From Trichostrongylus colubriformis (lineage: Eukaryota > Nematoda > Chromadorea > Rhabditida > Trichostrongylidae): a stretch of DNA of 64,000 nucleotides. Made by a program: the position numbers and the translations under genes. This document shows positions 11,055-60,413 of this stretch, in pieces (within the stretch, counting starts at the first letter, position 1; every line of letters starts with the position of its first letter). A model generated the notes under the pieces. The model had not been told where the DNA came from. It did no database searches and was given only the letters and a program-made list of their open reading frames with translations. The stretch lies in assembly GCA_963978905.1 (NCBI GenBank), contig OZ022261.1, forward strand, positions 29,943,686-30,007,685, in the 5' to 3' direction.

Positions 11055-13640
11055 CTAAATTACTGGTGTATACTTTGTAAGCAGTTGGAAACAGCATTTA
11101 TCTCACTCTCTCAACCCTTACTCTCTGGTACCAGTTCTCGTTTTCATTTTTTCCATTATAACAGGTTAAAAGCAGTTGTCTGCGAAAAAAAATGAGACCT
11201 TGCGATCTGGTCGATGCCTAACATGGTTTCTGCTTGTGCAGACGGTTTTCGATCGCGTAACTACGGATCCGGTGCGACACAATGATGATCGTCGTCCATT
11301 TATTGGAAGAATGTTAAAGGATCGGAATAAAAGTTGAAGCAGATCGGCCCGCTAGTGAGGGAACGAGTACTTCTATGCTGAGGACACCGATCGATAGTGA
11401 GGCAGCGCGGCCACAGCGCCCAGGCCCCCAGAAATGGAAATGGATATACATGCACGCCCCAGGAGTAGCACGAGCATTTCGAAAACGAGGGATGTGAGAA
11501 GGAGGAGACGGACGAGCGGACATCCATAAAGCATGGCTGAAAAAAGCATTCCCCGCGCATCTCTTTGCACAATCATCATCAACTTCCCTTCAACAATCGC
11601 CTTACCGTATCACTACCGTATGGCTTCAGCTGGTACTATAGTCGTCTAACATACAATTGTTAGTGAAGTGTACGGTAATCACATTACGGATAAAACCTCT
11701 ACCTACTCACGAACACGTACGCTGAAAACCATATTGGAACTGCAGCGTCAACTTGGAGACCTCCTAATGTTTCATGAAAACAGTATAGTTGAAAAAGAAA
11801 AGCATAAAAAAGTGATTAGAAGAAAGAAAAGAGGAGAATAATGGGTAGGGCGAGATTTTTTTCTCCTAAAAATCATGAGATTCCGAGGTTTAGGCCGTTC
11901 ATTTTCTGAAAGTGCCCTGAGCACCCATTACTGGCCACAATTACAGCCACAAAGCAAATACCAGTATTAAAGTATTCGACAATTTTTCCAACTTATGATC
12001 TACTTTAGAATACCCTTACAGCGATATGATTTCCGCCTCTTCCTTGAACTCAAATGCCAGCTTACATTTTGTTATAAAAGGGGAGCTCGCAAAAATCCTT
12101 TTTCTATTCCCTGCCACAAAAATCATTTAATCATTTATAAAGTAGCCCACAAAATCTCCATGTCTCCCGGAATTCATGTTACCTTTATGTTTCTTGCTTT
12201 ACCTGCACTGCATAAAATAAAAAAAATAAAAGAATCTGGTGTGAAGAAATCGTAGGGACCTCAGGCAATAGGCTTCTGGTGCCTCAATGGGACTCAAAGA
12301 ATTCATCTGCCGTTATTTCGATATTTCCGGTTTTCTTCAGTAAGATTTTTGATTTAATACAGATATTCACAGATTCAATATTCACTATTCAGCGTTCAAA
12401 GGTCCGAAAGATGTATGATTCCATTTTTTGCAACCAGCGACTAGCCGAGTGTGTAAAATATCTCTTAGTTCCTCCTATTATTTGCTATTTATAATTTGTA
12501 CAAACATAGATGGTGATTTTCGCTTAAACATGCTGTATTATGGGCATAGCTCATTTTCGCGTAGTATTAAGTGCGGGTTCTGTGAAAGTAACGGTTCTGC
12601 CCAGCCTGTGCTGTTGCTTCTTGAAAACCAATGTTTTATCTGAAAAGTAAAAAAAATGAAGGAATTCCAGAAGAAAAAGGTTCAATGGGATTTTGAATTG
12701 GTTTCATCGAACAACAGCGATTTGAAACACAGTTTTTAGATACAATCTCTGTCACCGTCATGAGATGAATGACCTAAAAAGTTTCACCTGAAAATTATTG
12801 TAATGTATTAATAGTTCATCAATATAAGCAGGATTTGTTTCTGAACATGACTGCTCATCCGGTGGTGTGAACCACGTGTTCCAGTATCTTATGCAAAAAC
12901 CGATATCCGTCGATATCGAACCCTTTCTTGCAACCTTATAAAGTTTTAATTTTTGCAAAAGTGCTCCCTCAAAGGAATGATCCGTTCTCGATCTTTCGCT
13001 CAAATATCCTACGTATCACGTGATTCCGAGTAAAAATCCGTCAGTTATCCCCAACCCTAGTTGCAACTTGAGCATTATCAAATAAAAATACTCAAATGAC
13101 TGCAGATAATACAAAATCGATTAGCCTATCATCATAAGGCCGCTTTCTTAGAATCACTCGAAAGATCAAACATTTGTGTCAAAAATAGAGTTTTTCTTCA
13201 TTTCAAAGTATATACTGAACAATATCACTTCACAGAGAATTAGAAGTCATAAAGTCATCGCAGCAGCATATCCTACAGTTCAGCAACAACTGGGTCGTAA
13301 CAAAGTACATTGATTATGAACTTTTCTTTTTTCGAACTTCCAATCTTTGAAGACAAGAACTTCATTACTTGAACTAGGAAAGAACGAACCCTCCGAAGAC
13401 CTTTCATTCAGACCAATCAACAAAGTAACTTTCAATGCCATCACACTGGACAGCTAATGATTTCTCCATTCAGTACATATTCTAATGTTTGAAAGTTTCA
13501 ACATCCTGAATGACTAAGCGGTTATTCCTTTTCCCAACCGTCAATATTCAGAAAACAGTTGAGTTTACATAAGTAACCCTAGAGGCAATTGGCAAATTGT
13601 GAATTAGGCCTTGGCTAGAGAATCACCTCGGTATACTACT
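11055..13640. other. No recognised gene
   Basis: Immediately upstream of the first certain unc-2 exon. Bases 11300-11575 are GC-richer and open in three minus-strand frames, but none looks like protein. The rest is AT-rich with no repeats matched elsewhere in the window. Confidence 0.4.
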
Positions 13641-14048
13641 TTGAAGGAATCGTCCTCGGAAACTTTATGTTTCTAATTCATGAGTCTTTCTACTATATAC
13701 AGTAAATAACAGAAACTCGAGAGACCATAAAATTTCGCTTGTTCCGATGTAGGAAACGGAAAGCTGGAAAGACAGCAGCTTGTTCGAATTCCCGCCAAGC
13801 AAGATTTGGACAGCGGTCGACCGGGAGGGAACAATGCAAATTTTCGCGCCCAGTATTGTTGATCTGCTCCCCACACTGCGTCTTTGCTATAGAGCCCTCT
13901 CGGCCCCGCCTTCCCGGAAGCCCACCGCGTCGGACGCTACTCCGAGGACTTTTCCACGTGAAACTCTGTATGTGACTTATAATATGCGAACACAACATAA
14001 ACATATGGGTAACAGAATAACTCAGATTTTGGTGGATGATTCCTTCAA
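13641..14048. repeat. Repeat family E, copy 1 (MITE)
   Basis: About 410 bp with inverted ends TTGAAGGAATCGTCCTCGG and, at the right, TGGATGATTCCTTCAA. It contains the family core GCGCCCAGTATTGTTGATC, TTTCCACGTGAAACTCTGTA and ACATATGGGTAACAGAATAA. The long open frame 13780-14370 is an accident of this repeat. Related copies: 22466-22835, 23768-24185, 28066-28515, 31325-31772. Confidence 0.65.
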
Positions 14049-16896: not shown

Positions 16897-17539
16897 CAGA
16901 CATCTCACTCTAATTTCACTGTTACAGCATGATGCTGGACAATAGAACGCTCTCCGATATTCACGTCAGTCTGATGCGTGCCACTCCTTTCAACTATTAC
17001 CTAGGTAAAGCCGGCCAAACAGCCATTTGTACCGCCTCTTTTATCATTTCTCCTGGTCGCGGAGGCCGCTCTTCGAATAACAGCTGATCACCAATCGATA
17101 TTTTCCTCGGGTGTATAGGAGACGACAGTAGTTCTAAACAATTTTAACGACACAGTTCACTAACAAGTACTTTTTGCCAACTTTACCAATTTTTCTACAT
17201 ACCCGGAGCTGCTATAGGTATCATCCATGGCTGGAGGCGGTCGAGCACCGGCCGACACCTGTTCGCCTCACCACCCTCGTGCATGAGGTCTCACTTAAAA
17301 AGCATGGCTCTTATGAGTTGAAGAGTTCGCGAGAGTTATCGGATAAGTAAGGAAGATAAGATGACGCAAAGAAATTCTCTGAGCACTTGCAAAAGTTTTC
17401 TACAATAGTTACCACAGTGATGGATATTAGTTGCGATATTCCACGAAAAGCTCAATAATATTGTTGTGAGATTACGTTCACAGAGAATAGCAGTGCATGA
17501 GTAGGATGGCATGCTCCAACAAAAACCTACTGCCTGTGG

Positions 17540-17625
17540 TGCAAGAGGAACCAATGCGGCACCGCAAGGTCGCGAAGACGACGTGCGGCGACAGCGAACG
17601 CCGCATCAGGTCCCCCTTAACGGCA
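17540..17625. repeat. GC-rich short foldback, family K copy 2
   Basis: GAGGAACCAATGCGGCACCG faces the complement of CGCCGCATCAGGTCCCCC. Same core words (CCGATGCGGC-like) as 8575-8660 and 26540-26645. Confidence 0.45.
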
Positions 17626-29027: not shown

Positions 29028-29505
29028 CACCCTTAAGGGTGCGCTATGCGATAATCAGATTAGTGGCTTACTTTCTTGGGGAAACTGGGTGCTTGGATAA
29101 CTGCTCAGGTTGTCCTCCGCTGCGGTTGCACGGTGCATCGTCACTGTGTTGTGCCTGCCCGATCACAACCAAGCCACGCCCATCCAACCAAATCACACCT
29201 GGCCTTAGACGAACAATTCCCAGTGTGGAAGCTGCTTTCACCTAAATGACTGTTTTATCAAAATTAACTTCTCTTATCGCAAGCTTCCTTCTCCATGTGA
29301 GCGCCAAGATGGAAATTGACTCGTCTACAGGTAGGTGTAACTTGGTAGGGTGGGCGTGGCTCGGTTGTGTTCATACAGACACAACACCGTTAGGGTGCAC
29401 CGTGCAGCCACAACAAAGGTGCAGTCTGAGCAGTCACTTAGGACCTACTGTCTCAAAAGGAAAGCGGCTGAACTTTATCGCTTGGTATGCTTTTGAAGGA
29501 GTCGG
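29028..29505. repeat. Family D foldback element, copy 1
   Basis: Two inverted arms of about 180 bp around a 120-bp loop. The left arm has GCGATAATCAGATTAGTGGC, then CACGGTGCATCGTCACTGTG and CAAGCCACGCCCATCC. The right arm is the reverse complement of the same words (GGGCGTGGCTCGG, CAACACCG, GTGCACCGTGCAG). Ends are degenerate. Confidence 0.65.
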
Positions 29506-29569
29506 CAGGGAAAAGGTGAGAATAATAATAGGGACGAAGGATTCTTCTGTGGTGGAACATTACAGTTCA

Positions 29570-42400: not shown

Positions 42401-43007
42401 TGACAAATGCTTCAAAAATTTGAACATTTACGTTTTTTACGTTCCACCTGGTCGTCCGCCCACGGATGGTCCGATTTGCTTGCTTTCCGAAACAACGTCC
42501 GAGATCCCGTTTCGTTTAAGACTGTCGTGCACTGGACGACGATTGCGAAGGACTGTGGAAAAGAAGTTGGAACCCGCGCAAGGCCAATCGCGGTGCTGAA
42601 GGACGGGTCGCCTAAGTAACCTAGGTAACGTTTTTTACAACTTAACATGACCCTGAGAGGAACGTGGGGTAGTAACCTGTGAGAGAGACCCTTCTGGCAT
42701 GGCCCAGAAATCGCATCTTGGATCCATACCCGCACAAGCCAAACGGACCTTCCATCTTTTCGGAGTCAAGCACTGATTTGTACGTCGATTGGCCCTCATG
42801 AGCCACTGGAATGCCAAGTGGCACTCAATGCCGCTAAACCCTAAACAGAAATGAAATGGGTGGCACATCTCGGTTTGTTTGACGTCAACTATCTTTTTAC
42901 ATGTAACATGATTCTGGCTCGCTCCTCAGCTTTATTCTGCAATTAGTATTGGCTTGTTTTGCGTGAACAGCTGCAATTACGCGACACCCTATCGTGCTCT
43001 GTAGCAG
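39454..43007. other. No recognised gene; solo MITE end at 41228-41279
   Basis: The only repeat recognised is a solo right end of the GGGTGTGTGC family (GCGATTCGTTGTCATATCTG then CACACACCC, 41250-41279). Open frames at 42366-42735 on both strands have no recognisable family. Confidence 0.4.
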
Positions 43008-43202
43008 GAATCGACCAAGCTGGAGATGGGATTTCGAATCTCAATCCTAATTATTTTAATCGTTTACACGTTGGCTACCCCTATACTATTGCTAGGAAAT
43101 CTGTACTACATTATCATCGAACGCTTGTGGCTTGGCCCAGCTACTTTGCCAACATCAGCGGTGCAGCAGTCTTCAGCGCAACTACTGCCGGCGCCGCTAA
43201 TA
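43008..43202 (+). CDS. Possible exon encoding a membrane segment, interrupted by a MITE
   Basis: An acceptor-like TCTGTAGCAG precedes an open frame encoding ESTKLEMGFR then ISILIILIVYTLATPILLLG and NLYYIIIERLWLG, a strongly hydrophobic stretch long enough to cross a membrane. The frame runs straight into a family D foldback element at about 43203 and no convincing donor is seen before it. It may be a relic exon or a chance hydrophobic frame in AT-rich DNA. Confidence 0.18.
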
Positions 43203-43438
43203 AGGGGCATATTTCGTGATAATCAGGTGGGCCGATTTACCTTCTCGGAACAGTGGATCCTTGAGTGACTAGTAAAGCTGCACCTTTTTCGCGTCGCCAC
43301 GGTGCGCTATCACGGGCGCTACACCTGCTCGAACTAACTCCGACGCCACCCACTTGAGCTCCCTTATTGGTCAACTGAGCAAAATGGGTGGCGACACATC
43401 TGATTATCGCGAATTGTGCCTTCAAAGGCACCGGGACG
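43203..43438. repeat. Family D foldback element, short copy
   Basis: About 235 bp. Left end AAGGGGCATATTTCGTGATAATCAG; complement of the right end starts GGTGCCTTTGAAGGCACAAT and runs to CGCGATAATCAG. The centre differs from copies 1-3, with CACGGTGCGCTATCACGGGC, so it is a subfamily. Confidence 0.6.
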
Positions 43439-43489
43439 GGGGGAGGGGGAGCAGGGAGGGAGAGCTTAGTGGAAACAGACATTCGCGCT

Positions 43490-43885
43490 TGGTAGAGATA
43501 ATGTGAAGCGAAACTCGCGTTGAAAAACGCGCTTCTGGGGCACTATTGCGATCCCAGCGCACTTCATCTCCAATTGCATACTTCAGTGGCCGAGTTGCTT
43601 GCTGCGGCGGGCAGAGAAGGCGAAATTGATTTCGTTCACTGTGGTGTTCAACGAGTGAAGCAGCAATCAGAAACAATGAAGTGAAACAGTGAAAGGGTGA
43701 TCAAGAGAATAAGTATGAAAAAATACGTCTATGGCAGAAAATATTCAATGAATTTACAGTCGACGTCATGGCAAGCCGTCGTGTGTGCAATAATCGAACT
43801 ACAAGCGAGTACGGTTGGCCAACCTCCAGGTGCCATTAACGTGCTCTTCATCACTGAGGAGGATGCTGCACACCAAGGGGTCAGC
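43490..43885 (+). repeat. Repeat family J, uninterrupted copy
   Basis: Contains ATACTTCAGTGGCCGAGTTG, CTTGCTGCGGCGGGCAGA, GGTGTTCAACGAGTGAAGCA and AATTTACAGTCGACGTCATG. The same sequence occurs at 49840-52620 split by an RTE element. The first part is related to family F. Confidence 0.6.
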
Positions 43886-44029
43886 TAAGCCAACGCTACC
43901 CCCCCCCCCCCCCTCCACGACTACTCGCCGTCGGATCCCACCTCATCGAGGCACACCTGCACACCCAGAAGGCGACAGAGAGTCTAATACAGTAGAGGTA
44001 CTACCCACCGTGCAATAAAGTTGACGGTT

Positions 44030-45310
44030 CACACCACGGAGCTGTATGAACGGCTCGTTCACTTGAGCTAAGAGAGTTTGTCATCATCTCTCATGAAGGC
44101 TTCCGTATTATGCCTGAGCGGCTCACCGTGGATGCCATCTTCATCTTTAGACATGAATGTAATAATTGTAAAATGAGTTGGCCTTGCTATCTGGTCTTCC
44201 TAAATCTTGAAAAGGCCTTCAAGACAGTTCACCCAACGCGTGGAACCCGCTTCGAGAACGACGGATACTAGAGCACCTGATCGCCATTATACAGAATATG
44301 TGCGATGAAGTTGAGGCAGTCATACTTACTTCACATGGGCTGACAACTGATGTAGGAATCTCGGTAGGGATGCACCAAGGATCAGCTCCAAGCCCATTCG
44401 TCCACCTGCTTGCTCTGGAGGGCATGAAGGCTTCTTGGAGTAGACATTGGGGACCATCCTACTATTGATGAGCCTCAAGGGTTGATTAAAAACACAGCGG
44501 TTCATTTTAGTAGAGGCGAAACGAACCGACCAATTTTAATAAACTAACTTTTGAACATTTTTCGAAGTTTTCTTTCTTTTTTGCTGACGACAACGTACCC
44601 ATGTCAGATACCATAAAAAAAACTTCAGGAAAAAGCGCAGAGATCTTAGGAGAGGCTGGCAGAAAATGGCCTGCGAATGAACGTCAGGATCACAAAATTA
44701 TGAGCTATGAGTACTGTGTGGAGTCCATCGTGAACCGCCAGAGAAAGCATCGAAAGGGTTGAGAGGTATCGGTACCTACGAAGTGATGTGCCGCTGAGGG
44801 TACGGTAGACATGGCCGTGAAAAGTCGAATAAATGCGACATGGCTGGATTGGAGAGAGTCAGCAGGAATCCCCACGATGCTCCATTATTCTCGAGGGCAA
44901 GGTGTTCTGATCGGTGGTAAGGCTCATTATGCTCTGTGACAGAGACTGTCCCATAATAGAATCACGAGAGGCAACAACACTTCGCTGAAATGAGAATACT
45001 GAGAAAAGCACGCAGGTGAACGCGGCATAACAAGATCAGGAAGGAGGACGTCAGAGCGGTCATACAGAGCTCCTGTTCAGCTCCATATGAGGTGCAGCGG
45101 TTAGCTCGGTATGGGCCAGCCAATTGAAAAGACTATGGAATTTCAGGTACCGGACAAGCGACGGCGAAACGTCTCAAAGGGGCGATGGAGAAAAGTCCTA
45201 GAACCGACCTCACAGAAGTGGAAGACACGGTAGAAGGTGCCTTGAATAGAAGAAAGCGGCAACAACTGACAAGGACAGCGGATCCCGCTACGGCGCAGAA
45301 CTAACACTAG
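44030..45310 (+). pseudogene. RTE-type LINE reverse transcriptase remnant
   Basis: A degenerate reverse-transcriptase gene with many frame breaks. In order: PERLTVDAIFIFRHE-like text near 44110; the motif A region VFLNLEKAF at 44193-44219, where the family has LDLEKAFD (the catalytic Asp is Asn here); ISVGMHQGSAPSPF near 44355-44400; and FADD (catalytic motif C) at 44580-44591. Downstream to about 45300 is the decayed C-terminal part with a KRRWRK/ENRPHR-like tail. Not functional. Confidence 0.75.
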
Positions 45311-45798
45311 GAAGAATAAGAAAAAGACTTCATTATTACAGAATACCTCTTCTTAGTCCTCATTTCCCTCATTACCCCCGATTGACTTTGAACACCATAC
45401 GCCCCGCAACTTCTCTAACAGGAAGGGACAACTCACTGAGACAATTTGACAACTCATTTACTTCCTATGCGGACCATTATCACCGGTAAAAGTCAATGGG
45501 TCAAAAACCCTGCATCTCAATCTACCTCATGGAGTAGGAATCATCATTGAAGGTGTTATTTAACAAAGTTCGACGAGTGTAGCAAATGAATTATAAGTGT
45601 TGATGATGCTGAACAAGTGATGCTCGTTTAGAGGTGGGAAAGAAGGGAATAAACAACTCTCCATATTCTCATATGTCATCGTTATCATTAGCAGCATCCT
45701 AGCCTCACAGCTGACGTGTGTTACAGTACATAAGAAGGAGAAGTTTGGGATGAGGGGAATGATTACGAGCTATCTGACCTCCTTGCCATGCATCTTAA

Positions 45799-47610
45799 CC
45801 CATAACGGACGGCGGCGTTTTTGCGCGGGACGGCCTCTGGGACGGGCGCGTTTTTTTTGTCTCGCGGGCGTGCGCCACCCGTGGCGCACGTCGGCACCCT
45901 AGGCAGGTTTTGTTCCATCATACGGGGACGGGTATCTCGTTGAGAGGGCGCAGACGGTAAAGCAAAAGTTGGCGCGCGCCAAAGTAACACAGTTCGCACT
46001 TATACTCTTCAGTGATTTCTTGTTAGTTCACGTTTTCACTACACTTCACTTCTTGTTTTCACTACTCGCATCTGTTTATTGTAGGACCTTATGAGCAGCA
46101 TACACTTCGCTTTTCAGCGCGAATTGCTCCGTGGCTTTCTTTTACACTTGACCTTTCTCGTTTTTTTTCGCATTCCTGAGCGCCCAAATATCTCTTCTGC
46201 TACATTTGACAAGCATTTGACTGTTTCTCTCATGCTGTTTTTCATTTATCTGTTGTACGTTGTACTTTAGGTTAATCTTTCGTTTCACCACTTCTACTGT
46301 TCCAGGCTTCTCTTGCCGTTCGTGAATGCCGGAACAAAACCTGCCTGGGGTGCCGGCACGCGCCAAATGGTGAGGCACGCCGGCACCCAGGGCACGTTTT
46401 GTTCCGGAATATTCGAACGGGTCCGTTGAAAGGGCGCAGAAAGCAGTAAAAAAGGTTGGCGCGCGCCAAAGTATAATAGTTTGCACTTATAGTCTTCAGT
46501 AATTTCTCGTTATCTCACATTTTCACTACACTTTTCACATCTTGTTTTCACTACTCGCAATCACTATTTTCACTACTCTGAATCATAAACTTAGGCAGTT
46601 CTTCAGCATTTGTGATATAGATTTGCTGGTACCATTTCATTCCCATTACGTTTCAGTTTATCGCTTCTGTTGGATTATTCGACTGCTCTAGTCACCAGTT
46701 AAACATTTTGAGTAGTAAGATAAGCGCGAGGTGATTTTCAGATGGGAAAGAAACGTGCCTCGGGGACAAAACCGAAGTCTATGGATTGTGATGGTTCCCA
46801 AATGGAGGAGGAGAGAATCCTGAACGTGGGTTATTTACGCTTCGAGGAAATGTGTTCCTGTGTTTTCGGAGATTGTGTTTTCAGAAAAGAGCTAAGCTTG
46901 TATCGCCTGATTTGTCTGTGTCGAGTGATGCCGTTCCAAATATTCCTCCACCAGGTATGCTCTTTCAGTGATGCTTCACCTGTGCTTCTACTGTACCTGG
47001 TGAATGCTTTGTTTGTGGTACAGCTTTATTAGAAACTATTGCAGCGGTGTCTAAAGTGGCTGAGATAATTCCAACCAAGAAATTCAAGTCCAGGATCATC
47101 GAGTCTACTATGGGAGACCGCCGCCAAAGATATCGTGCTCGTGCTCTACTGGTGAAGGTTGAAGGACCCAGGCGGGTGTCTAGAAGGAGATGTGTTGGCT
47201 GTTACAAAGCCCTAACAAAGTCAAAGGGTGCACCTTATGCGAGATTCCATGCCAAACGGGTAACCACAAAATGTTCCTCATGTGGGGCTTTCTATGGCTT
47301 GACATGCTTTCAAGTTTGCCATACATTCTGCTCTTATTGATTTATTTGTTTGTATAATTGGAAAGGTTCCGCATTTGAAGTCAATCGCATATTATTTGTT
47401 GTATATCCGATAAAATTTATGCTGCACCGGTCCTGAGAACATATGCTATTCTTCAATACTAGCAGTGTATACGTGTACAATTAGATTCTTGGAAATACTG
47501 GAAAGCTAGAAGAAAAATCATTCTGAATGTCATGCGCCACCCGTGGCGCACGTCGTCCCCAGGTCCAGTTCTAGCGTGCGCCACGGGTGGCACACGTCGT
47601 CCGTTATGGG
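45799..47610 (+). mobile_element. piggyBac-type DNA transposon, internally decayed
   Basis: 1812 bp flanked by TTAA (45795-45798, 47611-47614). Terminal inverted repeats are CCCATAACGGACG and its inverse. Subterminal palindromes GTGCGCCACCCGTGGCGCAC lie near both ends. The coding remnant at 46742-47340 ends in a cysteine-rich domain (RRCVGCYKALTKSKGAPYAR ... KCSSCG...LTCFQVCH) like the C-terminal zinc-binding domain of piggyBac transposases. The DDD catalytic core is not seen, so the element is defective. Confidence 0.85.
46742..47340 (+). pseudogene. piggyBac transposase remnant (N-terminus plus C-terminal Cys-rich domain)
   Basis: An ATG-led frame (MGKKRASGTKPKSMDCDGSQ) follows an acceptor-like GATTTTCAG. 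After about 96 codons it stops. A second frame from about 46990 reads ECFVCGTALLETIAAVSKVA, then MGDRRQRYRARALLVK and the CxxC/CxxC/LTCxxxCH cysteine cluster, and stops at 47338. The catalytic region expected between these parts is absent. Related to piggyBac by TTAA target, TIR start CCC and the C-terminal cluster. Confidence 0.6.
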
Positions 47611-47614
47611 TTAA

Positions 47615-48139
47615 GGGAAGACGGATGAGAGGCAAAAGCCGACACGGCTTTCAATTGTGACGGTATTCTAAGCATAACGCAACGGGTTAGATGGGGAGTG
47701 AGTCACTTCGGGTAGGTCAAAGTCAAGCACTGATTTGAGAAAATTTCTTTAGGGGTATGATCACTTGTAACCTAACCCAACGGCGGAGATGACCAATCCA
47801 TAATCATAGCGTTGCTACCTGTGCAGTACAAAGTATGATTATAGACTGACGATACGAGATAACCACGTCATTGCCCAAAAATCACTGAAATCAGGCAGTT
47901 CGTCAAACATTTTGCGAGAAATTTTCTTCCTAAATACGATTCCCCTCTCGAGAACTCTTCAATCTTTGTATGACTCTTCGGTCTTTGCCCAGTTAAGCAG
48001 AGTGAAACAAAGGGCTGAAGGTTCAAAGTGTAAAGGGGTGATAAAATCGGCTGACTAGGTTCAAGCCCGAAACTAATATTTGATCTGATCTTCACTGAAA
48101 AGTCTCGGAGGGCATACAAAAAGCGACCCCCTACAAATA
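47615..48139. other. No recognised gene
   Basis: About 0.5 kb between the piggyBac element and the first mariner. Unique, AT-rich; the minus-strand frame 47868-48119 is unrecognised. Confidence 0.4.
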
Positions 48140-49037
48140 TTAGGTTGATTCATAATAAATCGGACAAATGGTAGTGATGATTTCTAGAGATCATAACTCA
48201 GTAACGAATTAACGAAAATGGACGCGCGAGGTACCGTTGGAATGAGTATGAAAAGCTCTTCAAAGTACCGCAAAATAGTCACTCCAAAGTAAATTTATTC
48301 CGCCACAATGCCGCACGATTTCAAGCGGTCCAGAGACCACATTCGCAACGTCATACTATTTATATCGCTATCTGGCCAGGAACCCGCGGATATCGGCAGA
48401 CGTCTGATAGAAGTTCACAAGGAGCATGCCCCCGGCAGAAGTACACTGTAGTTGTAGCATTCGAAGTTTGCGTCAGGCGACTATTCCATCGAAGACGAAA
48501 ACCGCGGTTGGTGGAGCGTACACGGCGTAGAGTACTAGGAGCTGCTCGATGAAGGTACCACAGTATCCGCCGACGTCTACGTTCGTCAATTACGAGAATT
48601 GAAGGCCAATGTCCAAAGTTCGCTACGGCGGCGGTCACATGTCTACTTCCAGCACGACAACGTGTCTACTTCCACAGACCGCACTTCGCAAGATCGACCA
48701 AGGCCGAGCTGCTGTCGTACAGTTGGACCGTACTTCTATACCCACCGTACTCCCCAGACCTGGCCCCTTCAGATTTCCACCTTTTCTCCCACAGCCAACG
48801 CCACCTGGACGGCCAAGACTTCAAAACACGCGACGAGGTCAAGGCGGCACTCGGCAACTTCTTCGAGCTCCAGCTTCCGGCCTTCTGGAGCAAGGGCATC
48901 CATGATCTGCCTATACCGTGGCAGAAGGTCATCGATAAAGATGGAGTATATTTCAAGTGAATCCCTGTTGTCGTAAAAAAGTTGTACGACAATGATTAAA
49001 ATTGGTCAATTTGTCCGATTTATATGAATCAACCTAA
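48140..49037 (+). mobile_element. Defective mariner element, copy 1
   Basis: 898 bp flanked by TA. TIRs start TTAGGTTGATTCATAATAAA; the right TIR lacks one T. The transposase is broken: a start MPHDFKRSRDHIRNVILFIS runs into a stop after 47 codons, then pieces in other frames (FASGDYSIEDENRGWW, LLDEGTTVSADVYVRQL, YPPYSPDLAPSDFHLF, DKDGVYFK). These are recognisable as helix-turn-helix start, linker and DD34D C-terminal region, but much of the catalytic domain is deleted (898 bp versus about 1.3 kb for a full element). Confidence 0.88.
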
Positions 49038-49839
49038 TAGAAACAAGGTAAGACACAAATTTTTTAAAGATGATGGCCTAAGACGATATTGTAGAGAGAA
49101 GAGCGCATGGACAACGCAAAAGACAAACAGAGTGAAAGAGCACGCTGTTCCCTTAGTCCTCTTGGAGTTGTGGACTGTGAACAAGGTGTCGAGCTTCTGC
49201 AAGCGAGGGCTCATAACTTATACTGTGATGCGAGGTCGTTGCTTGATAACTTTCAGAGTGCACGATTCAAAAATGACCTTTTACTGATGGGAATTTGTAC
49301 CCTTCACTTGGTGGGTCGTCAATGGAAATCTCATACATGGCGCGATCCACAACAAAGCAGGCCAAGGCCAATAGCCCTTTCGTAGGTCCGCTTGCATCGA
49401 AACCACGTACAAAGGACTTCTGGAATCCACCAATTAGCCATGTAAAGCGGTATCTATCCATGGGTACCAGTGTGGATATAGTTAAGGAACTATGGGATGA
49501 AAAGGAAAATCAGCCTATGGGCTTCCTTCATATCTCACTACGATTACAAGAACGTAAACTGGTACTAGCGAACCACAGTACGTACCAAATGAGTTCGTAT
49601 TACCAATAATGTGGATGAAATCCTCATGCATGGCGCATCCCGCAGTGAGAATCTTTCTATTCGGATTCTTTAAGGTTCTTTGAGGTTTTTTCCAGTCTGC
49701 CGGTCAACAATCGACGTTCTCTAGGACAAAGAGCATTTAAAGAACCTGAAGGGGATGGGGCCAAAAAAGGAAGCCTACTTCGAAACTTTATCTCTATATA
49801 CGAGCATCTGGGTCCAGAAGGGATAATGTGTAGCGATAC

Positions 49840-49990
49840 TCTCGTTGATGAACGGTTCTTTGGGGCGTTATTGCGGTGGTAGCGCGCTTAACTTCAAACT
49901 GCATACTCCAGTAGCCGGGTTGCCTGCTGGCGGCGGGCAGATATGGAGTTGATCTCATTCAAAATTCATTAATGATGTTCAACAAATGAA
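49840..49990 (+). repeat. Repeat family J, left half of split copy
   Basis: ATACTCCAGTAGCCGGGTTG, CTGGCGGCGGGCAGA and GATGTTCAACAAATGAA match the uninterrupted copy at 43560-43659. The copy resumes at 52425 after the RTE insertion. Confidence 0.65.
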
Positions 49991-50129
49991 GGTGTATTGG
50001 ACAATAATAGTCGTGTGCGCACCGGTTTCTCCGAACACGAGAAGGACGGGTTTTCTCTCAGCCTTAACGAAGCCATCAGATCAGTTCCGGAGAACGTTTA
50101 CTTCACCATGGCAGGTGATCTGAAAGATC

Positions 50130-50528
50130 ATGTCGGAAGGAATAGAAGAGGCGTGGAACGAGTGCACGGAAACAAAGAAGTACGGGCAAGGAACGCTGAG
50201 GGAAAGAAAGAGAGTTCCCGACCTGGCAGCAGCCCATGACCTAGTAGCCTGCAGAACGCTCTTTGCGAAGAGGGAGATTGAAAAGGTGGCCTACATCAGT
50301 GGAGAAAGACAAACGGAAATCTACCATGTTCTCGTAAAAAGACTGGCCTTCAAAACTGTTAAGGACATCAAGGTAATGCCAGCAGATGAGCTGGCAACTC
50401 AGCACAAGCCTCTCCTAGTGGGCATTGTCATAGAGTTCCCGAAGAAAATGAGGGTGAAAATCGAAAGAAGAATCCGGTGGTGGAAGCTGCATAGAGAGAA
50501 AGAGCGACCTCAAGGGAAGAGTGCTTGA
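50130..50528 (+). pseudogene. RTE endonuclease domain fragment
   Basis: A 132-codon frame covering the C-terminal half of the RTE endonuclease and linker: DLAAAHDLVACRTLFAKRE, YISGERQTEIYHVLVKRL, ELATQHKPLLVGIVIEF, RIRWWKLHRE. Family members carry Asp-His in the ..IDH.. position; this copy has Tyr-His, removing a catalytic Asp. The preceding half is in another frame (49997-50239). Confidence 0.75.
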
Positions 50529-50677
50529 GATGAGCCTTCCAAATCTTAGCGGTTCGATCCAGAAGTTATGGAGCGAAGCGGCACAGTCATCCTACGATGC
50601 GCAGAGGAAACACTAGGCGAGAATAGAAGCGGCGGAGCGGAGCCTAGAAGATCAACAGCAAAAGTTCAACTACAAAA

Positions 50678-50743
50678 GTTGCAAGAGGGTCACGAAAGCC
50701 GCTCTAGCCTGTTGCAAGAGGGTCACGAAAGCCGCTCTAGCCA
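50678..50743 (+). repeat. 33-bp tandem duplication inside the RTE element
   Basis: The unit GTTGCAAGAGGGTCACGAAA then GCCGCTCTAGCCT occurs twice back to back and stays in frame (LQEGHESRSSL twice). Confidence 0.9.
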
Positions 50744-51017
50744 AGGCATAAAAAACGGAGATGGATGCAGGAGAGAACGCGGACGGTAAAGACACTAGTT
50801 CATCTTTTGACTCGCTGGAGTCCGGTATCTGGCCACCCAAAACATCAGAATGGAGAAGTCAAAGCAGCGAAGGTGCCATTCTGTGTAAGCCTGCAGAGGT
50901 AAGAGGGCGGGAGTACTTCAACGAGCTATTTAATGAGGAGTTTTCTCGCAAAGAAAGACACAACAAGAGGCAACAGATGGTCCCATCCCATCCTGGATAA
51001 ATGAAGAGGTACTTCAA

Positions 51018-51383
51018 GTGATGGGGAATTCAAAAGTAGGGAAGACGGCTGGTCCAGAAGGGGTACCTATGGAGACATGGAAAGCCTTTGGAGAGTACGG
51101 CGTATGGTGGCTCACTCGCTTCCTCAACACGGTGTCCGCGCAAGGAATGATTCTGGATGCCTGGAGGACTATGAACATCGTTCCGATTTCCAAACAAAAA
51201 GGAAGAGCAGTAGAGTGTTCCAACTACCGAGAGATCAACTTGACAGCACATACTATGATGCTACACGAGCGGTTGGTCGACTTTAGACTCAGAGATCTGA
51301 TCCCAATCTCCCAGAAGCACAATGCCCGAAAGTCAACAACGGATGCGATCTTCATCGTTCGACAACTCGCGGTTAAGTATTGA
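51018..51383 (+). pseudogene. RTE reverse transcriptase fragment
   Basis: 121 codons of the N-terminal fingers: GKTAGPEGVPMETWKAFGE, AWRTMNIVPISKQKG, CSNYREINLTAHTMMLHERL, RKSTTDAIFIVRQLAVKY. It then hits a stop. Motif A is not readable; later RT text continues in other frames to about 51800. Confidence 0.75.
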
Positions 51384-52424
51384 AAAAAGCGCCGACCACG
51401 ATGAGTGGCCTTCTTCGACCAACGAAGGATCCGACCACCTTTCTTGACCAGTGATCTGGAGAGCCCTTCGAGATCGGAAGTACCCGAACACCTTATCTCT
51501 CTCATAAGGTGTATGTGCGCTGGCGCTGAAGCAGTCGTAAGCAGTCCGCACGGAAAACCAGTGAAGTGGACATCACGATAGGGGTGCACCACGGATCACC
51601 CTTGGGTCCGTTCCTCCTCCTGCTCACTTTAAATGTCATGGTTAAAGATCTTATGAACGAACCGCTAGAGAACATCCTCTACGGTGACACATTGCAGTGG
51701 TCGCGGATAACAAGAAGAACTCAAGAATAAAGTTCAAAAGTGACAGGATGTGCTGGTGGAGAATGCTCCCCGACTGAGCCTTGAGTAGACCAAGTTCCTG
51801 AGCTCAGAAAGATGTACAGAGGTGATCGTAGATCTTCACAGCGGAAATATAGAAAGGGTAGAAAAATTCCGGTATCTGGAATTCGCTGAAGCTAGCTGCC
51901 GAAAGTACGGTGAACCAGACAGTGAAGTCTCAGATAAGTGCGGCATGGATGACATGAGGAGAAACTCAGTGCTCCAGGACTTTTGAGAGTGGTGTACGGA
52001 TTGGTGGTGAGGTCAGCAATTCTGCAGGGGAGCGAGTGTTGGCCCACAACAAAGAATTACGAAAGGCAGCTGCACTCCGCAAAAATGAGGATGCTTAGAT
52101 GGGCTTGCGGTTGAGCACGACTCGACACGTCAGGAATGAGGATGTAAGAGCGGTCATGCAGACGGCTACGATGGTAAAGGCACGTAGGCGGAAGGCCAGA
52201 GGATCACCCAATAAAAAGTAGTTTGAAGCCTTCGGCCGGCGACCACGGAGAGCTCCAAAGAAGAGATGGAAGGATATCATCCAGAAGGACCCCACCGATA
52301 TCGAGGCCATTACAGTGAATGCTCTAGACAAGAACAAAGGCGATGTATGACAGAGGTTGCGGAACATGCGACGGCGCGGGATTTACGCCAGTGAGAAGTA
52401 GTAGTAGTAGTGGTAGTAGTAGAA

Positions 52425-52620
52425 GATGTTCAACAAGTGAAACAACAAACAGAAACAAACAAGTGAATCCATGAAAGAGAGAATAAGCGGAAGGAAAGTA
52501 CTAAAAATGCATTTATGATAAAAAAAATCCAATGAATTCACACTCGCTGGCTTCGCGAGGCGTAGTGTGTGCAGCTGCAGAACTAGAGCGGGCACCGTAG
52601 ACCCAAAACCCCAGAAAATC
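52425..52620 (+). repeat. Repeat family J, right half of split copy
   Basis: GATGTTCAACAAGTGAAACA, then AATCCAATGAATTCACACTC and GCGTAGTGTGTGCAGCTGCA, match the uninterrupted copy after 43643. Confidence 0.6.
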
Positions 52621-52839
52621 CAAGTCTTTAAGCGCTGCGCTTTGCTCAGCTTGGTCATCAAACACAGTACATATGGCTCCGAAAAGTACATATGTATTAT
52701 GATAGAGAGCTGAGTACTCAGACAGGAGTGATTAGGACTTTCAAGAGCTTGCTGGGTCCATGGCTCCCTCAAAGACACGGGGAGGACTAATTTGGCAGAC
52801 TGTGGAATATGAAAGTAGAGGGGCTCAACAATGTAACCG

Positions 52840-53165
52840 TAGAGAAAGAACGAGACAAAACGACAAAAACCCCGAAAAACCCCTCTTCTCTCTTGCATCC
52901 TCTGCGCCAATAGCCGAAGTAGAGTGCAGACGAACGAAGGGGCAAAATCAGCCGGCCGCAAACGTTGTCCGACCTTCGCCAGAACCCGCCCGGCTGCTGG
53001 ACTGAAGGACCACACGCTATGCTGCGGAGTCGTGATAAGACCTCAAGCCGCGTTTTTTCAATGCGAATTTCGCCACAGATCTCTACTACTAAAGTATAAT
53101 AGAAGCTTGTTTTCAAAGAACATGCATTCATAGTTCTCAGTTTTCTCTCACCCCTCCCGGTGTCT
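52840..53165 (-). repeat. Repeat family F, copy 4 (inverted)
   Basis: The plus strand shows ACCCCTCTTCTCTCTTGCATCCTCTGCGC, CCGCAAACGTTGTCC and AGTCGTGATAAGACCTCAAG. The reverse complement matches other family F copies, and 61480-61820 aligns over its whole length. The 210-codon frame on the minus strand (52383-53015) is this repeat. Confidence 0.6.
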
Positions 53166-55467
53166 CTACTTTGTCAAGAGACTTTGTACCAATGCTCATG
53201 TCATCACCCCATCGATCTGTGAGTTTACCCAGTATGTAATCGACAAAAGAAATAATTAAACTTTGTGGATAAGCTTTTTGGTGGAAATTTGAATGTGTTG
53301 TGATCCTGTTAAATACAATACTCACTCAACTTATTAGCTGGGGACTACCAATGCAACCTCGGCATACCCAGGTCAAGCAACGGAACATTTCGTGTACAGG
53401 GAAAATTTCCAAGAAGTAAGGATTCCATCAAACCAACCCTTACTCTTATCCTCACTCCCCTCATAACCCTCCATCCCCTCCTCCTCCATCCATGGACAGA
53501 TGCTGTTGACATACTTACGTTGTGCTTCTAATGAAAGGACGTTAATCAATTCATATTTGGCTGCCTAGTACAAAGGATGATCATCGACTTTTTATTTTTT
53601 TAGACTGTTGCCACACAGATCACTTCAAAAATCGTCTAGTCCGAGATCTTCTCACCGAATACGAAGCCCGTTTCCAATCTAAGATACAATCCCTCTGAGG
53701 ATTCTTCATTCCTTGCCTAGCCTAGAGCACATCTTGCTATAGAATACTGCATATTGCATACGAACAAGTTACGCACGTTCAATATGATAATTTCAATTTC
53801 ACAATCAGCAGACGGGGACAATATAGCATTAAAAGAAAGGGTGAAAAGCGAGATGAGCAGTGGAAGACATTGGTAAGGACCGAGAAAGCTCTGTGCTCAC
53901 GAAGACACCTCGAGGGGAGATTGGTGCGCGATAGTAGTAGCGTGGTGAAGATCGATGGATTCTAGGGGCTGAATGCCAAGGATTACTGAAACGTCTTATA
54001 GCCTTTGCGTCGTCCTTCGAGTTCTCCTCGTTCTTGTTTCTTACGACCCGCACATAATCCTCAGTTCTTAGCCACCGCTAGATGGGCTTTTCCAGTAGTC
54101 ACAGTGTTGCTATCATTAAATTTTTCAGCGATGACGAACATCATTTTGTGCTTTTAACTGGTGAAGCATAGCGAAGTCCAATATCAGTTACATGGACCGA
54201 AGATAGCCAACACCACAGAAGGGCGCTCACAACTTGGACGAAGAGCTTATTGATGGAAATGATAAAATGTTCCAATAAATCGATCTGCTGGCTCTGGAGC
54301 ACCACTAGCTGGCACCATACATAAGGAGGGTCATGCGAAGAAGCGGCGAAGTGAATACGCAGTTCCCATATCTCAAATTGCAGTCAACAACGCCAACTCT
54401 CCTAGTTGTTCAGAATTTGAATTCTTTTGCAGAAAAAAAGTGACAAGGAATGACAGTGAACGGCAGTGAAGAACGAAATGGAACGGCCTAAAACTTGGGA
54501 AGTGAAACCTCTGCTCTCTTTTATAGGAAAACGCAACAGCGCGCTCATCGCTGACGCATCGATTACATTCGCGTAAATCTGTGATGCCTTGCGTCACGCA
54601 CAGCGGGTACTGTGCTCACTTATGCAAGGAGCTGTGGCTAAGTAGAAGAATAACTGCAATTGCTTTTCTTGTACAAGGGAAAAGTTTCTCGTGATGCCTC
54701 TGGCACCCTGAACAAAGTCCACCCCCCGAACAACGTTTTCTTCATGTGCGAAATTACGATGAAAGCTAGCGCACAGGTCAGCGCAGTGCTTTTTTATGGG
54801 AAGCTGGAGCGTATATTTCACCAGAATTGTGCCAAACACCGTTGCAAAATCGCTTAAACTTGTCTGGGACAATGAAATATCACGGACGTGATTATAGAAC
54901 TTGTTGGTCATGCCTTCGTAACTGAGATTACTGTAACCTATACATAGTCATTCGAATTCCATCATTTCTAGATTGTAGAACAACATATGAATACTTTACC
55001 TACATTTGAAAGCTAAGAGCATTTTTAGATCCGTAGGAAGAGATATGAAGGTAAATTGTATATATTCTTTCAGCTCACTAGCTTTAGCTCCGTAGGGCAT
55101 GATAAATCAGCATATAAACGGTGGGGACCGTAGGTCTCTCTTCCTGCAATGAAGTGACTTCGGTGCAATTCAAGTGAAAGATGGTGCAAAGATTTCAGTC
55201 AGGAGCAATATTTTCTCATATGTGCTGAATTCACTCGCTTATCACTGCATTTTCTTAAATACTTACTTTATATCGTTTAATCATCACATTTCCTTATATA
55301 TAGTTTAATCACCCAGGTTTGAAGTCGATTTGGATAAGTCCTGGATTAACCCGCATGGCAAACACAGAAGTATCTTGTTGGCCGATATCAGTGGTACAGA
55401 CAATACTAAATCGAACTGGTATCGCCCACAAGTAGGGGGTAGGTACCATATCCACACCTTGCTTCTA
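53166..55467. other. No recognised gene
   Basis: AT-rich with scattered short frames. An SL1-like 22-mer at 55301-55322 is discussed under rejected items. No shared repeats found. Confidence 0.35.
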
Positions 55468-56365
55468 TTAGGTTGATTCATAATAAATCGGACAAATGGT
55501 AGTGATGATTTCTAGACATCATAACTCAGTAACGAATTAACGAAAATGGACGCGCGAGGTACCGTTGGAATGAGTATGAAAAGCTCTTCGAAGTACCGGA
55601 AAATAATCACTCCAAAGTAAATTCATTCCGCCACAATGCCGCACGATTTCAAGCGGTCCAGAGACCACATCCGCAACGTCATACTATTTATATCGCTATC
55701 TGGCCAGGAACCCGCGGATATCGGCAGACGTCTGATAGAAGTTCACAAGGAGCATGCCCCCGGCAGAAGTACACTGTAGTTGTAGCATTCGAAGTTTGCG
55801 TCAGGCGACTATTCCATCGAAGACGAAAACCGCGGTTGGTGGAGCGTACACGGCGTAGAGTACTGGGAGCTGCTCGATGAAGGTACCACAGTATCCGCCG
55901 ACGTCTACGTTCGTCAATTACGAGAATTGAAGGCCAATGTCCAAAGTTCGCTCGGCGGCGGTCACATGTCTACTTCCAGCACGACAACGTGTCTACTTCC
56001 ACAGACCGCACTTCGCAAGATCGACCAAGGCCGAGCTGCTGTCGTACAGTTGGACCGTACTTCTATACCCACCATACTCCCCAGACCTGGCCCCTTCAGA
56101 TTTCCACCTTTTCTCCCACAGCCAACGCCACCTGGACGGCCAAGACTTCAAAACTCGCGACGAGGTCAAGGCGGCACTCGGCAACTTCTTCGAGCTCCAG
56201 CTTCCGGCCTTCTGGAGCAAGGGCATCCATGATCTGCCTATACCGTGGCAGAAGGTCATCGATAAAGATGGAGTATATTTCAAGTGAATCCCTGTTGTCG
56301 TAAAAAAGTTGTACGACAATGATTAAAATTGGTCAATTTGTCCGATTTATTATGAATCAACCTAA
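55468..56365 (+). mobile_element. Defective mariner element, copy 2
   Basis: 898 bp flanked by TA, same orientation as copy 1. By eye I count about ten differences, roughly 99 percent identity. The early stop after MPHDFKRSRDHIRNVILFIS..., the missing catalytic region and the C-terminal frame (ARVYFHRPHFARSTKAELLS then LYPPYSPDLAPSDFHLF to DKDGVYFK, 55937-56287) are shared with copy 1. The C-terminal frame is longer here because copy 1 has one extra A near 48628. Confidence 0.88.
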
Positions 56366-56420
56366 TACAATGCCGAATGTATGTCAAATACGTGGTGCAT
56401 CCAGCGCAAATCCATTTACA

Positions 56421-56547
56421 CTCCATTTCGGAGCTCCCGATAGGGCGCGGGTGGGTGGCGAGAGTGAGAGTGTGTGGCGGAGTGAGAGATTCTGATGCAC
56501 CCTCACCCAAGTTTGTAGGCCACGCCCTATCAGCGCTCCGAAATGGA
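56421..56547. repeat. Short foldback MITE beside the mariner
   Basis: CTCCATTTCGGAGCTCCCGA faces CAGCGCTCCGAAATGGA; the inner arms GATAGGGCGCGGG and CCACGCCCTATC also pair. The centre is purine-rich. Bases 56548-57810 show nothing else recognised. Confidence 0.6.
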
Positions 56548-57810
56548 CTGATCACCATTTTGATACCATCCTTTATGGATAACTCTGTTTCTGAAAGGGT
56601 CACGGTGGCTGAATATCAAGATGGAAGGAAGGCTAGGAATAAAAGCCTGATTTTTGACAGTCGTGAGAGCAAAGAAGCTGTCGAAGGAATGTGATAAATG
56701 GAAACAGGAAGAGTATTGCATTTCCGTCTATGTTAACACTAAGATGGACGAAAATCGGAAATTGGATCTGTGATTTCCTTTTGCTGCCTTCATGTAATGC
56801 ACAGAAACGCCAGATTTCTAGATATAGCGAAGCTTGAATGAATGAGTCTGAAGTGGAAATGAATAATTTGTTAGCCCGATACTCGAAGGCCAAGGGTCGA
56901 GATTCGAGATGCGTAGCTAATAAACGAGCGCTTCATCTTGTCCTATCTTGAGCCACTCTTCTTCTGGCACTCTCGATATTCTTAAGAGAAATTGCCAGTA
57001 AATCCAAAAACACGAGAGATAATATGTAGACCAAGCATCAGTATTTCAGCGCCATCCTAGCTGTCTACGGTAATAAGGAAAGATGGGTAGGTCTTGACTC
57101 AAGAAGACATATGATCACACAACACCCCTTAAACATAAAAGTATACATAAAATCGAAGGCTGGATATCTCCAAAAGTTTAAGGATAAAGGCTGGGATATC
57201 CACAAGAGCTTCCTTCGATATGGTGTTCGAGTTGCCAAAAGTAAGCCATATGTGGTTACGGGACGCTCTTTGAAACGGTGGGGTTAAAATCTACCCATAT
57301 CAGTTTAGCGTTTGACTCCCTGGATTGAACAGCGGAGGTAAACCTCTTTGGATGCCGTATGAGTGCCACTAATGTAGCAAAACATGCACCAACACCTTTG
57401 TGATATCTGTTCGGAGATAGATGCATAGCGCGTTTGGGTGAGACGCCATATGTGATATTCTTTTTGGTATTATAACTAAGGATGAAGCGAGTCAAGTCAT
57501 TCTTTATCCATCATTGTATACCTGGAGCAGGGTCAAGCCTGGCGTCGAGGAAATTTTCGGAGGAATACGATCCCCTTCTCTAGAGAGGGATCTCCGGCAC
57601 GACCAATCGGACTCCGACGACCTCTCCCCAGTTAACGCCTCCAAAACTGTCATCGTAGGCTCCCAGTCAGGCTCAAGGCATCTCGACGGAGCACTGAGCC
57701 TGACTTATACCCCGTCACTTTCCTGCGGAGGGCGACCGTAGAGAGCAGTAAAAGCGGGCCGCTCGTGGCAAAGTACAGAGATAGGATTCCGTGTTTTCAT
57801 GATTCACCAG

Positions 57811-58068
57811 GTCCTCTATTATTCCAAAGCTGAACACAATCTTACAATGGATACAATCCAAGGTTGTGTGGCACAAAACCTAACTGGGAGGATGACAAAC
57901 TCGACTTCTACCTCAGCTGAGCCTCGCCAGATCACTATCGAAGACGAGCCACGCTTCCGAATAAAGGTTGACAATGAGGTGCATTTTGAAAAGTCTGCCC
58001 GAAAACGATTAACTTCTGTACCATTCATAATGAAACCAGGAGCCACGATAGAGCAGCTGATGGAGCTG
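57811..58068 (+). CDS. Unrecognised exon-like open block (plus strand)
   Basis: 86 codons open between an acceptor (GATTCACCAG|GTC) and a possible donor (GAGCTG|GTAGGA), in phase 0. The translation is polar and coding-like: it starts VLYYSKAEHNLTMDTIQGCV, has a Ser/Thr stretch (NSTSTSAEP), then ITIEDEPRFRIKVDNEVHFE and a basic SARKRL, and ends MKPGATIEQLMEL. The frame stops 12 bases beyond the donor if unspliced. I do not recognise a family. It is on the strand opposite unc-2, so if real it belongs to a nested or neighbouring gene. Confidence 0.3.
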
Positions 58069-60413
58069 GTAGGAATGACATAGACGATTTCTTACGGGAT
58101 TCCAGTGACATCAGATAAGTAACGAATACTGGCATGAAAAAGGGCATCTGCTTTGATCGCCATAAAAACCGCTCTTGGCAAAACAATTTCGCTGCCGGTG
58201 ATAATAGTCCGTGAAGGAAAATTTTTATTAAGGATTAACATCCTTCACAGTTTCTTTTTGCATTTTTATAGCGGAAGCTCACATACTTGCTGGAAATGAT
58301 TATTGCAAGGATAGTATGTAAAATGTGGCTTTGGAGATGGTTTCTCCCATGCTTCACAATGCATGGGTCAAAGGTGCCATCAAGTGTCCCCATGGCTTTA
58401 ATGGAAATCGAAGTCATGGCGCACATCTCTAGAGAATTGACAACGGGCTATCGGGGATGATGTAATAAGTTGCGATTGCCTTTTTTTTTGGAAAATCTTT
58501 TTTTTTTGGGAAACACCATAAGGAGCTGATATTATAGCATTGTCTAAACCCGTCACTTGTGCATGTTAGTTCTGCTCCTGAAGCGGAGATGGTGTGCTGA
58601 CGAAAGGCGCTGCTGCCACTCACGTGGTCTGAGGACCTATGCCCGCCTACACCGACCAAACCTTCCTTCCTCCCTGGGTCGTTAAATTGGTATCAGATTC
58701 GTCTGCGAGCTTTTGAACCTTGAATGGAATTAGATGTGGCGCATTTCTAAAATGGATCGAGTAACACTGAGTGTTCTGTGGTGGATCAGAAAATGAGATT
58801 CAGAAAGTTATCAGACCTTTTGACCCACCATACATTTTCTATATATCACACTCTCATACGATAGCGAAATAATAAAGGGATAAGATATCCTAATCGCTCT
58901 CACTATCAAATTTTAACAACTCACGAACGTGTTCTGGTGAAAATAAGCGAAAAAATTCTCAGAAAAATGGATCTCAACTATTCGATAGGAAGACGAAGAA
59001 GTAGGTGTAAGCGACGATTCGGGTTCAAGCTGCGCCTCAACATCCGGCGCGCATCGTTTTTTATTTATGTCCATCCCCGAAGGATTATCTATTGCAGCCT
59101 TCGTATGTTGCCATTATACAGCATTTACATGGTCCTTTGCCATTTTGAGCAACGATTTGTTTATGTGTACTAATAGGATTACCAATTGGGTCATAAGCGA
59201 TGACGTATCAAATTGCTCCACAGCTAATTTTTCTGAAGATGACGCACCAGCTCGATTGAGAATTGGAAGTAGAAGTGCAGAGTGGTGCGAAAGAGAAGCA
59301 AAAGTTAAATGGCCAGGAACCAGGAAAATATAATGGAACCCCCCCCTGTTTACTATTTTGGCACGTGTTTCTGGACACACCTTGTTGATGACATAAATCT
59401 AAGTCGGAGCTATATGTGTCTGTGACGTGAGGCGGTCATGATTCACTAACTAGTAGGAGGAGCATAGCCACCAGTAGAGGGGTCAGCGAAGGAGTTAAAG
59501 CGCAGCTTTTATCCAGTCAGGGCTGACAACAAAAAAAAAGCCATCAGAATGAATGGTTGGATCTTCCGTGATGATTCCGACAGCAAAACTAATGCGTGGT
59601 GTAATTCCAAGAAATCATCCATTGGATCTAAATGAATTGATGGCACACTGTGCACACGTACCAGGTCATTAAGAAGCCGAAAGCTTCCTAGCCGTTCGGT
59701 AGTGGCTCTCATCGCATCCTCTGCTGCACGAAGATTCGGACCAGAGTTTCAAGCTGATAAGATAACCTACATTTGGTACAACGGAAAAGTTGAAAAAATG
59801 AAAATCGCAAGAGTGAGAAAAAATTGTAGTCCTGTATCTTCCCAAGGAAATTCGGAGGAAAATAAGTGCCACGGTTTCCCCATTTGAAAATGATAACCAT
59901 AACTGCAATATTTGGGGTGTGCGACAGGACATTCAAACCGAGTCACCACGCAACGCATTACGTCACTGCGCGCGGCAAGTGTCTTACTGGTCCCTTCATG
60001 AATTGGCCGCACACCTTTTGAATGCCTTATTTCACACTAATGTTCTGGTATACAAGGGAAACAGCTAGAGGAATTGAAAAGAAGCAGGATCGTGTTGAAG
60101 AATCAGAGAATCTAAGAAAATTCATTCAGTAGATGTGAATTCAATGCGAGAAATTTGGAAATTTTTCTACAACGATTATTCAAGAATGGAGCTTCAAGAA
60201 GAGTTTTGAGAAGCTGACGCCTCATCGGCACACCCTACGATTTATTTATAGTTCCCAGGGAAAACCCAGTCATTTCATTCACTTCATAGATTTACGTGAC
60301 TGAAAAATTCCACATTAGTCGCAGATTCTGATGCAACCGATTTCCTTGATCTCTATTTGATACTCCAATTATCCTTCTGAGTACACGGCGCCATATACCA
60401 ATACCATACATAC
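58069..60413. other. No recognised gene
   Basis: AT-rich. Plus-strand frames at 58937-59333 and 59702-59887 have coding-like patches (for example NFSEDDAPARLRIGSRSAEW after an acceptor-like TCCACAG) but no recognised family or consistent splice chain. Confidence 0.35.

What the first reader, a model, noticed from the sequence alone, without database searches (positions are those of the whole stretch)
11055..60413. Possible 49-kb intron in the 5' part of unc-2, filled with transposons
Seen: the exon-like block 60414-60532 has strong splice sites. It ends with two bases (AG), and exon 10952-11054 begins with one (A); joined they give [16 protein letters not shown] with no stop. Both are on the minus strand and no recognisable minus-strand exon lies between. 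Inference: the two exons are adjacent in the mRNA and almost the whole window is a single intron. Introns this long are unusual for nematodes and would make this gene a transposon sink.
Basis: partly seen in the sequence, partly recalled or inferred. Interest (0 to 1): 0.75.

Follow-up and report, generated by a model that had tools for sequence, protein, structure and literature searches.

The report
unc-2 gene with three alternative starts
The supposed 49-kb single intron of a nematode nerve calcium-channel gene is really a stretch holding four short coding exons that match relatives, so the gene appears to have at least three alternative starts, with transposon-containing introns of about 20 and 29 kb between them.

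Summary
The exon at 60414-60532 is real: its 39-residue peptide matches the N-terminus of Haemonchus contortus UNC-2 (CaV2 alpha1), and the gene downstream is a clear CaV2. The main inference fails. All routes enter exon 11054-10952 in the same phase. The long form starts 3.6 kb beyond the window. The '49-kb intron' is therefore two introns, of 20,449 and 28,826 bp, the second containing two further starts. A direct 60414-to-11054 join is possible in frame as an exon-skip, but no retrieved relative shows it. Transposons are present: two 905-bp mariner-type copies, weak LINE-like sequence, and at least 21% of the interval repeated locally. Alternative CaV2 starts are known in Aplysia, so this is a nematode case of a known kind. 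The evidence is homology; no RNA was available.

The parts
60414..60532 (-). unc-2 long-form exon 4 (39 residues plus 2 nt), AARRASSLHPNTSIRPLEPSSTCSSLFEEERKYSSPARR
   Evidence: splice sites; tblastn with H. contortus P0002 N-terminus E 5e-16
39965..60413 (-). long-form intron, 20,449 bp
   Evidence: order of exons as in P0002
39881..39964 (-).
   Evidence: conserved in P0002, P0008, P0009
11055..39880 (-). long-form intron, 28,826 bp, holding the P2 and P3 starts
17203..17284 (-). P2 first coding exon (MHEGGEANRCRPVLDRLQPWMIPIAAP)
   Evidence: matches C. elegans UNC-2 P0004; splice check
17001..17133 (-). P2 second exon (...SPIHPRKISIGDQLLFEERPPRPGEMIKEAVQMAVWPALP), donor gtaata, joins the common exon in phase
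11199..11224 (-). P3 first coding exon MLGIDQIA(R), 144 bp before the common exon; donor gtctca is weak
   Evidence: exact match to C. auriculariae P0007 residues next to LAAEEARR
10952..11054 (-). common exon, [34 protein letters not shown]
9910..10018 (-). common exon, start of repeat I ([36 protein letters not shown])
9676..9746 (-). repeat I exon
8317..8456 (-). repeat I exon
7650..7780 (-). repeat I exon
4459..4645 (-). repeat I exon
3097..3182 (-). repeat I exon
2949..3037 (-). repeat I exon
   Evidence: no block of its own
2506..2609 (-). repeat I exon
1554..1729 (-). I-II loop exon (alpha interaction domain); gene continues past base 1
48138..49042 (+). 905-bp mariner-type element, about 32-bp inverted repeats at or within 3 bp of its ends
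55466..56370 (+). second copy, 98.7% identical
50937..51380 (+). open frame with weak LINE/RT likeness
   Evidence: E 0.037-0.085 against five RT chains: suggestive only

Best explanation
The interval is the 5' alternative-start region of the nematode CaV2 gene unc-2. At least three starts feed one common exon (11054-10952) in the same reading phase. P1, the long form, starts upstream of the window and runs through 60532-60414 and the 28-residue exon 39964-39881. P2 is the start shown by C. elegans UNC-2 (17284-17203, 17133-17001). P3 is the short MLGIDQIAR start (11224-11199). Each start would give a channel with the same pore and a different cytoplasmic N-terminus. The two large introns separate the starts and have taken in mobile elements, none of the locally repeated blocks falling in the four internal exons. 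Shown: exon positions, frames, splice-site dinucleotides, homology. Inferred: that each start has its own promoter, and that the isoforms differ in where or how they work.
For: CaV2 identity: the three best of 156 PDB sequences are N-, R- and P/Q-type alpha-1 chains (E 2.5e-215 to 1e-209; L-type 6e-167), and Ion_trans is the only Pfam family at E 0.001. P0002 covers all six long-form exons in order from 67556 to 10952. P2 and P3 peptides match Caenorhabditis UNC-2 proteins that go straight into LAAEEARR. Frames and GT/AG sites fit for all three forms. Shuffle control passed for the 28-residue and P2 exons. None of the four internal exons overlaps a locally repeated block.
Against: No RNA evidence was available. 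The relatives are database proteins, probably mostly gene predictions; P0001's N-terminus reads like intron. P3 rests on 9 identical residues in one relative, and its donor (gtctca) is weak: it fails a GTA/GTG donor filter that 70 other ATG-started stretches of the interval pass. P2 and P3 could receive upstream untranslated exons from P1 transcripts instead of having their own promoters. In Aplysia the shortest CaV2 start, just before repeat I, was not detected in use (PMC10657410, passage). Single-copy status of the 28-residue exon could not be checked.
Confidence: 0.88

Rival explanations
1. One reading: one 49,359-bp intron joins 60414 directly to 11054, with nothing coding between.
For: The join is in frame and stop-free; the 84-nt intermediate exon can be skipped without frame change.
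Against: 3 of 3 long-form relatives carry the intermediate exon; it and three more coding exons matched in relatives lie inside the interval.
Confidence: 0.05
2. A mixture: the 28-residue exon is an alternative cassette, so some transcripts splice out the whole 49 kb.
For: Frame-neutral 84-nt length and shared phase.
Against: None of the 9 proteins retrieved shows the skip, but only 3 of them are long form; the exon is better conserved than the 39-residue one beside it, which argues for regular use.
Confidence: 0.25
3. P2 and P3 exons are decayed relics no longer used in this species.
For: No transcript data here; weak P3 donor.
Against: Open frames, GT/AG sites and the right phase; high identity in the P2 second exon.
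Confidence: 0.08

Closest known systems
C. elegans UNC-2 (P0004) and Haemonchus contortus UNC-2 (P0002)
   Same: Same channel gene; their N-termini map to P2 and P1 exons respectively
   Different: Each retrieved protein shows one start only; here all are seen at one locus, spread over 56 kb
Aplysia CaV2 alpha1 gene (PMC10657410; passages read)
   Same: Four alternative start sites with distinct 5' exons, one of them right before repeat I
   Different: Mollusc; use measured by PCR, and the shortest start was not detected in use; homology of its exons to the nematode ones not tested
C. elegans unc-68 ryanodine receptor (PMC7644089; abstract and outline read)
   Same: Alternative promoters of a nematode calcium-channel gene give tissue-specific isoforms
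   Different: Different gene family; function shown there, not here

Membership tests
CaV2 (unc-2) alpha1 subunit | Best match to CaV2 rather than CaV1, CaV3, NaV or NALCN | tested here: met
   E 2.5e-215 (N-type), 6.6e-212 (R-type), 1e-209 (P/Q-type); L-type 6e-167; T-type 1e-100; sodium channels 1.6e-80; NALCN 1.9e-24
CaV2 (unc-2) alpha1 subunit | Alpha interaction domain in the I-II loop | tested here: met
   residues 380-434 match N-type chain 4dex_B, E 1.8e-19; the name of the domain is recalled
CaV2 (unc-2) alpha1 subunit | Four ion-channel repeats in one gene | tested here: met
   P0002 has 4 Ion_trans stretches and its residues 1-1780 map in order over 94.5 kb, with short stretches unmatched; by homology, the full transcript was not assembled
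Single very long intron | No exon of the gene between donor and acceptor | tested here: not met
   four coding exons inside
Gene with alternative first exons | Several start-codon exons splice in phase to one common exon | tested here: met
   sequence and homology only
Gene with alternative first exons | Separate transcription starts | not testable with these tools
   needs 5' RACE or long-read cDNA
mariner transposon | Transposase similarity and terminal inverted repeats | tested here: met
   SETMAR E 1.2e-17, Mos1 E 9.4e-17; inverted repeats of about 32 bp, two copies 98.7% identical; no Pfam hit

The most novel reading that the evidence does not exclude
Nematode CaV2 has an ancient set of three interchangeable N-termini. 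The long one is marked by a near-invariant RRVV(N/D)VSDHKTCALLM exon found in Haemonchus, Parascaris and Aphelenchoides, and it may be an undescribed regulatory or binding element. The starts have been kept apart by transposon-swollen introns in this species.
Probability: 0.55. Interest if true: 0.45.

Novelty: new member of a known kind. Interest (0 to 1): 0.3.

Why it matters
It corrects a gene model: a naive annotation would lose four coding exons and report one very long intron. It also gives an exact, testable exon map for alternative N-termini of a presynaptic calcium channel of nematodes, including a conserved 28-residue exon that the C. elegans UNC-2 protein retrieved here lacks.

Tried and rejected
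Rejected: the single 49-kb intron (see above). Rejected: treating Oesophagostomum P0001's N-terminus as a further start; its last six residues before LAAEEARR align to the intron just before 11054 with a stop in the window, so it looks like intron read-through by a gene predictor. Rejected: treating P0005's ending (MLKFDSKLMNGRK) as a further exon; no convincing match in 154 kb. Tried without result: tRNAs (0 genes), Rfam at gathering score (0 matches), Pfam on 10 chosen open frames (0 of 10 with a family at E 0.01; 10 of the 50 frames listed, one of them outside the interval). Genome-wide copy number of the 28-residue exon and of the mariner could not be obtained (tool busy). Papers: PMC10023163, PMC2213652 and PMC6713474 (passages only) did not mention alternative unc-2 starts in the passages shown; PMC9071541 (passages) gave no intron figures of use. 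Searches listed no paper on such starts in nematodes by title or by the start of the abstract shown (20, 20, 20, 3 and 10 papers listed), which is not proof of absence; two searches were intron-length searches.

I lowered the main confidence from 0.90 to 0.88 and raised the relic rival from 0.06 to 0.08 for that reason.

Full report
What was claimed. Two minus-strand exons, 60532-60414 and 11054-10952, were said to be neighbours in the unc-2 mRNA, making 11055-60413 a single intron of 49,359 bp with no exon in it.

What is confirmed. Both exons are there with the splice sites and phases described, and the join is open. The gene is CaV2: the 438-residue chain from 11 exons has Ion_trans as its only Pfam hit, and of 156 PDB sequences matched (60 shown) the three best are the N-, R- and P/Q-type alpha-1 chains, well ahead of L-type. 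Oesophagostomum dentatum P0001 is 392 of 399 identical over the shared part. The 39-residue peptide is real UNC-2: H. contortus P0002 aligns across the whole 74-residue query.

What is wrong. P0002 has 28 more residues, VVNVSDHKTCALLMTRMKEANRLPSPSQ, between the two claimed neighbours. I searched the N-termini of six of the seven relatives then in hand (P0001, P0002, P0004-P0007; P0003 starts at the common exon and was not used) against 154 kb, made of the window, 30 kb below it and 60 kb above it. The 28 residues lie at 39964-39881, between tttcag and gtgagt: 84 nt, in phase, 26 of 28 identical. C. elegans P0004 and C. bovis P0006 place a two-exon start at 17284-17203 and 17133-17001 (a 69-bp intron between them), and C. 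brenneri P0005 matches it as far as ...PRPG. C. auriculariae P0007 has MLGIDQIAR directly before LAAEEARR; the same nine residues are read from ATG 11224 to 11199 plus the first base of 11054. The long form's first three coding exons are beyond the window at window-equivalent 67556-67490, 65689-65648 and 65586-65513 (L009 3556-3490, 1689-1648, 1586-1513).

Strength. In 100 dinucleotide shuffles of the interval the best bit scores were 21.9 (H. contortus exon query), 24.3 (C. elegans query), 21.9 (Parascaris) and 21.2 (Aphelenchoides), against 57.0, 94.4, 47.8 and 41.6 in the real interval. The 28-residue exon is better conserved than the 39-residue one: Parascaris P0008 and Aphelenchoides P0009 keep RRVVDVSDHKTCALLM but have diverged over most of the neighbouring exon. 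That these three genera belong to clades V, III and IV is recalled taxonomy. The 9-residue P3 exon is the weakest part. Its donor, gtctca, lacks the usual A or G at the third base. In the interval 123 ATG-started stretches reach an in-phase G|GT donor within 250 nt, P3 among them, and 70 others do so with a better GTA/GTG donor. Its support is the exact match beside the same exon in P0007.

Relatives as k of n. Of 9 proteins retrieved (1 of 758 candidates at E 0.001; 6 of 1,064 at E 1; 3 of 3,546 at E 1, one seen before), 3 are long form and all 3 have the 28-residue segment; 3 (P0004, P0005, P0006) start in P2 style, P0005 with a different end; 1 (P0007) carries the P3 residues; P0003 is partial and starts at the common exon; P0001 appears to be intron read-through. 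None shows 60414 joined to 11054. So few long-form proteins cannot exclude a skip isoform.

Size. The long-form introns are 20,449 bp (39965-60413) and 28,826 bp (11055-39880). Other gaps between P0002 blocks along the 94.5-kb gene reach at most 4,974 bp (which kept minus-strand rows of at least 65% identity; in a rerun at E 0.01, 14 of 50 rows were under 65% and none was on the plus strand). The last part of P0002, after residue 1780, was not matched. For scale, a set of 24 H. contortus genes had a mean intron of 520 bp (PMC3156134, passages read). So the introns are long against that sample even after the correction; no wider comparison was made.

Mobile elements. A lower bound of 10,411 of 49,359 bases (21%) recurs within the 154 kb (blastn E up to 1e-10); none of the four internal exons is in such a block. 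Two 905-bp elements, 48138-49042 and 55466-56370, are 98.7% identical with inverted repeats of about 32 bp at or near their ends, and one frame matches SETMAR at E 1.2e-17 and Mos1 at 9.4e-17, though Pfam gave no hit. A frame at 50937-51380 is weakly LINE-like (E 0.037 or worse). 'Filled with transposons' is thus only partly shown; no comparison with other introns of this genome was made.

How it works. The simplest reading is a gene with alternative starts, all feeding a common exon just before repeat I, so that the pore is constant and the cytoplasmic N-terminus changes. Separate promoters and isoform-specific function are inference. Aplysia CaV2 has four start sites with distinct 5' exons; the previously described one is used less in sensory neurons than in the whole nervous system, and the shortest was not detected (PMC10657410, passages read). 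C. elegans unc-68 uses alternative promoters for tissue-specific isoforms (PMC7644089, abstract and outline read). This is thus a nematode case of a known kind.

Verdict. Exon real, gene real, intron model wrong: two large introns and four extra coding exons replace the single 49-kb intron.

Noticed in passing
48138-49042 and 55466-56370: Two 905-bp mariner-type copies, 98.7% identical, with inverted ends of about 32 bp: recent activity or recent duplication.
   Followed up: partly
37063-38109: Long inverted repeat, arms 343 nt, 77% complementary, 361 nt apart: MITE-like.
   Followed up: no
29028-32183: Cluster of direct and inverted copies of related repeats.
   Followed up: no
P0001 (Oesophagostomum dentatum), residues 1-31: Public gene model appears to read through the intron before the common exon as a false N-terminus.
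   Followed up: partly
L009 3489-3475: The long form's first exon has two in-frame donor choices (gtgtcg, or gtaaga nine bases later), omitting or adding three residues.
   Followed up: no
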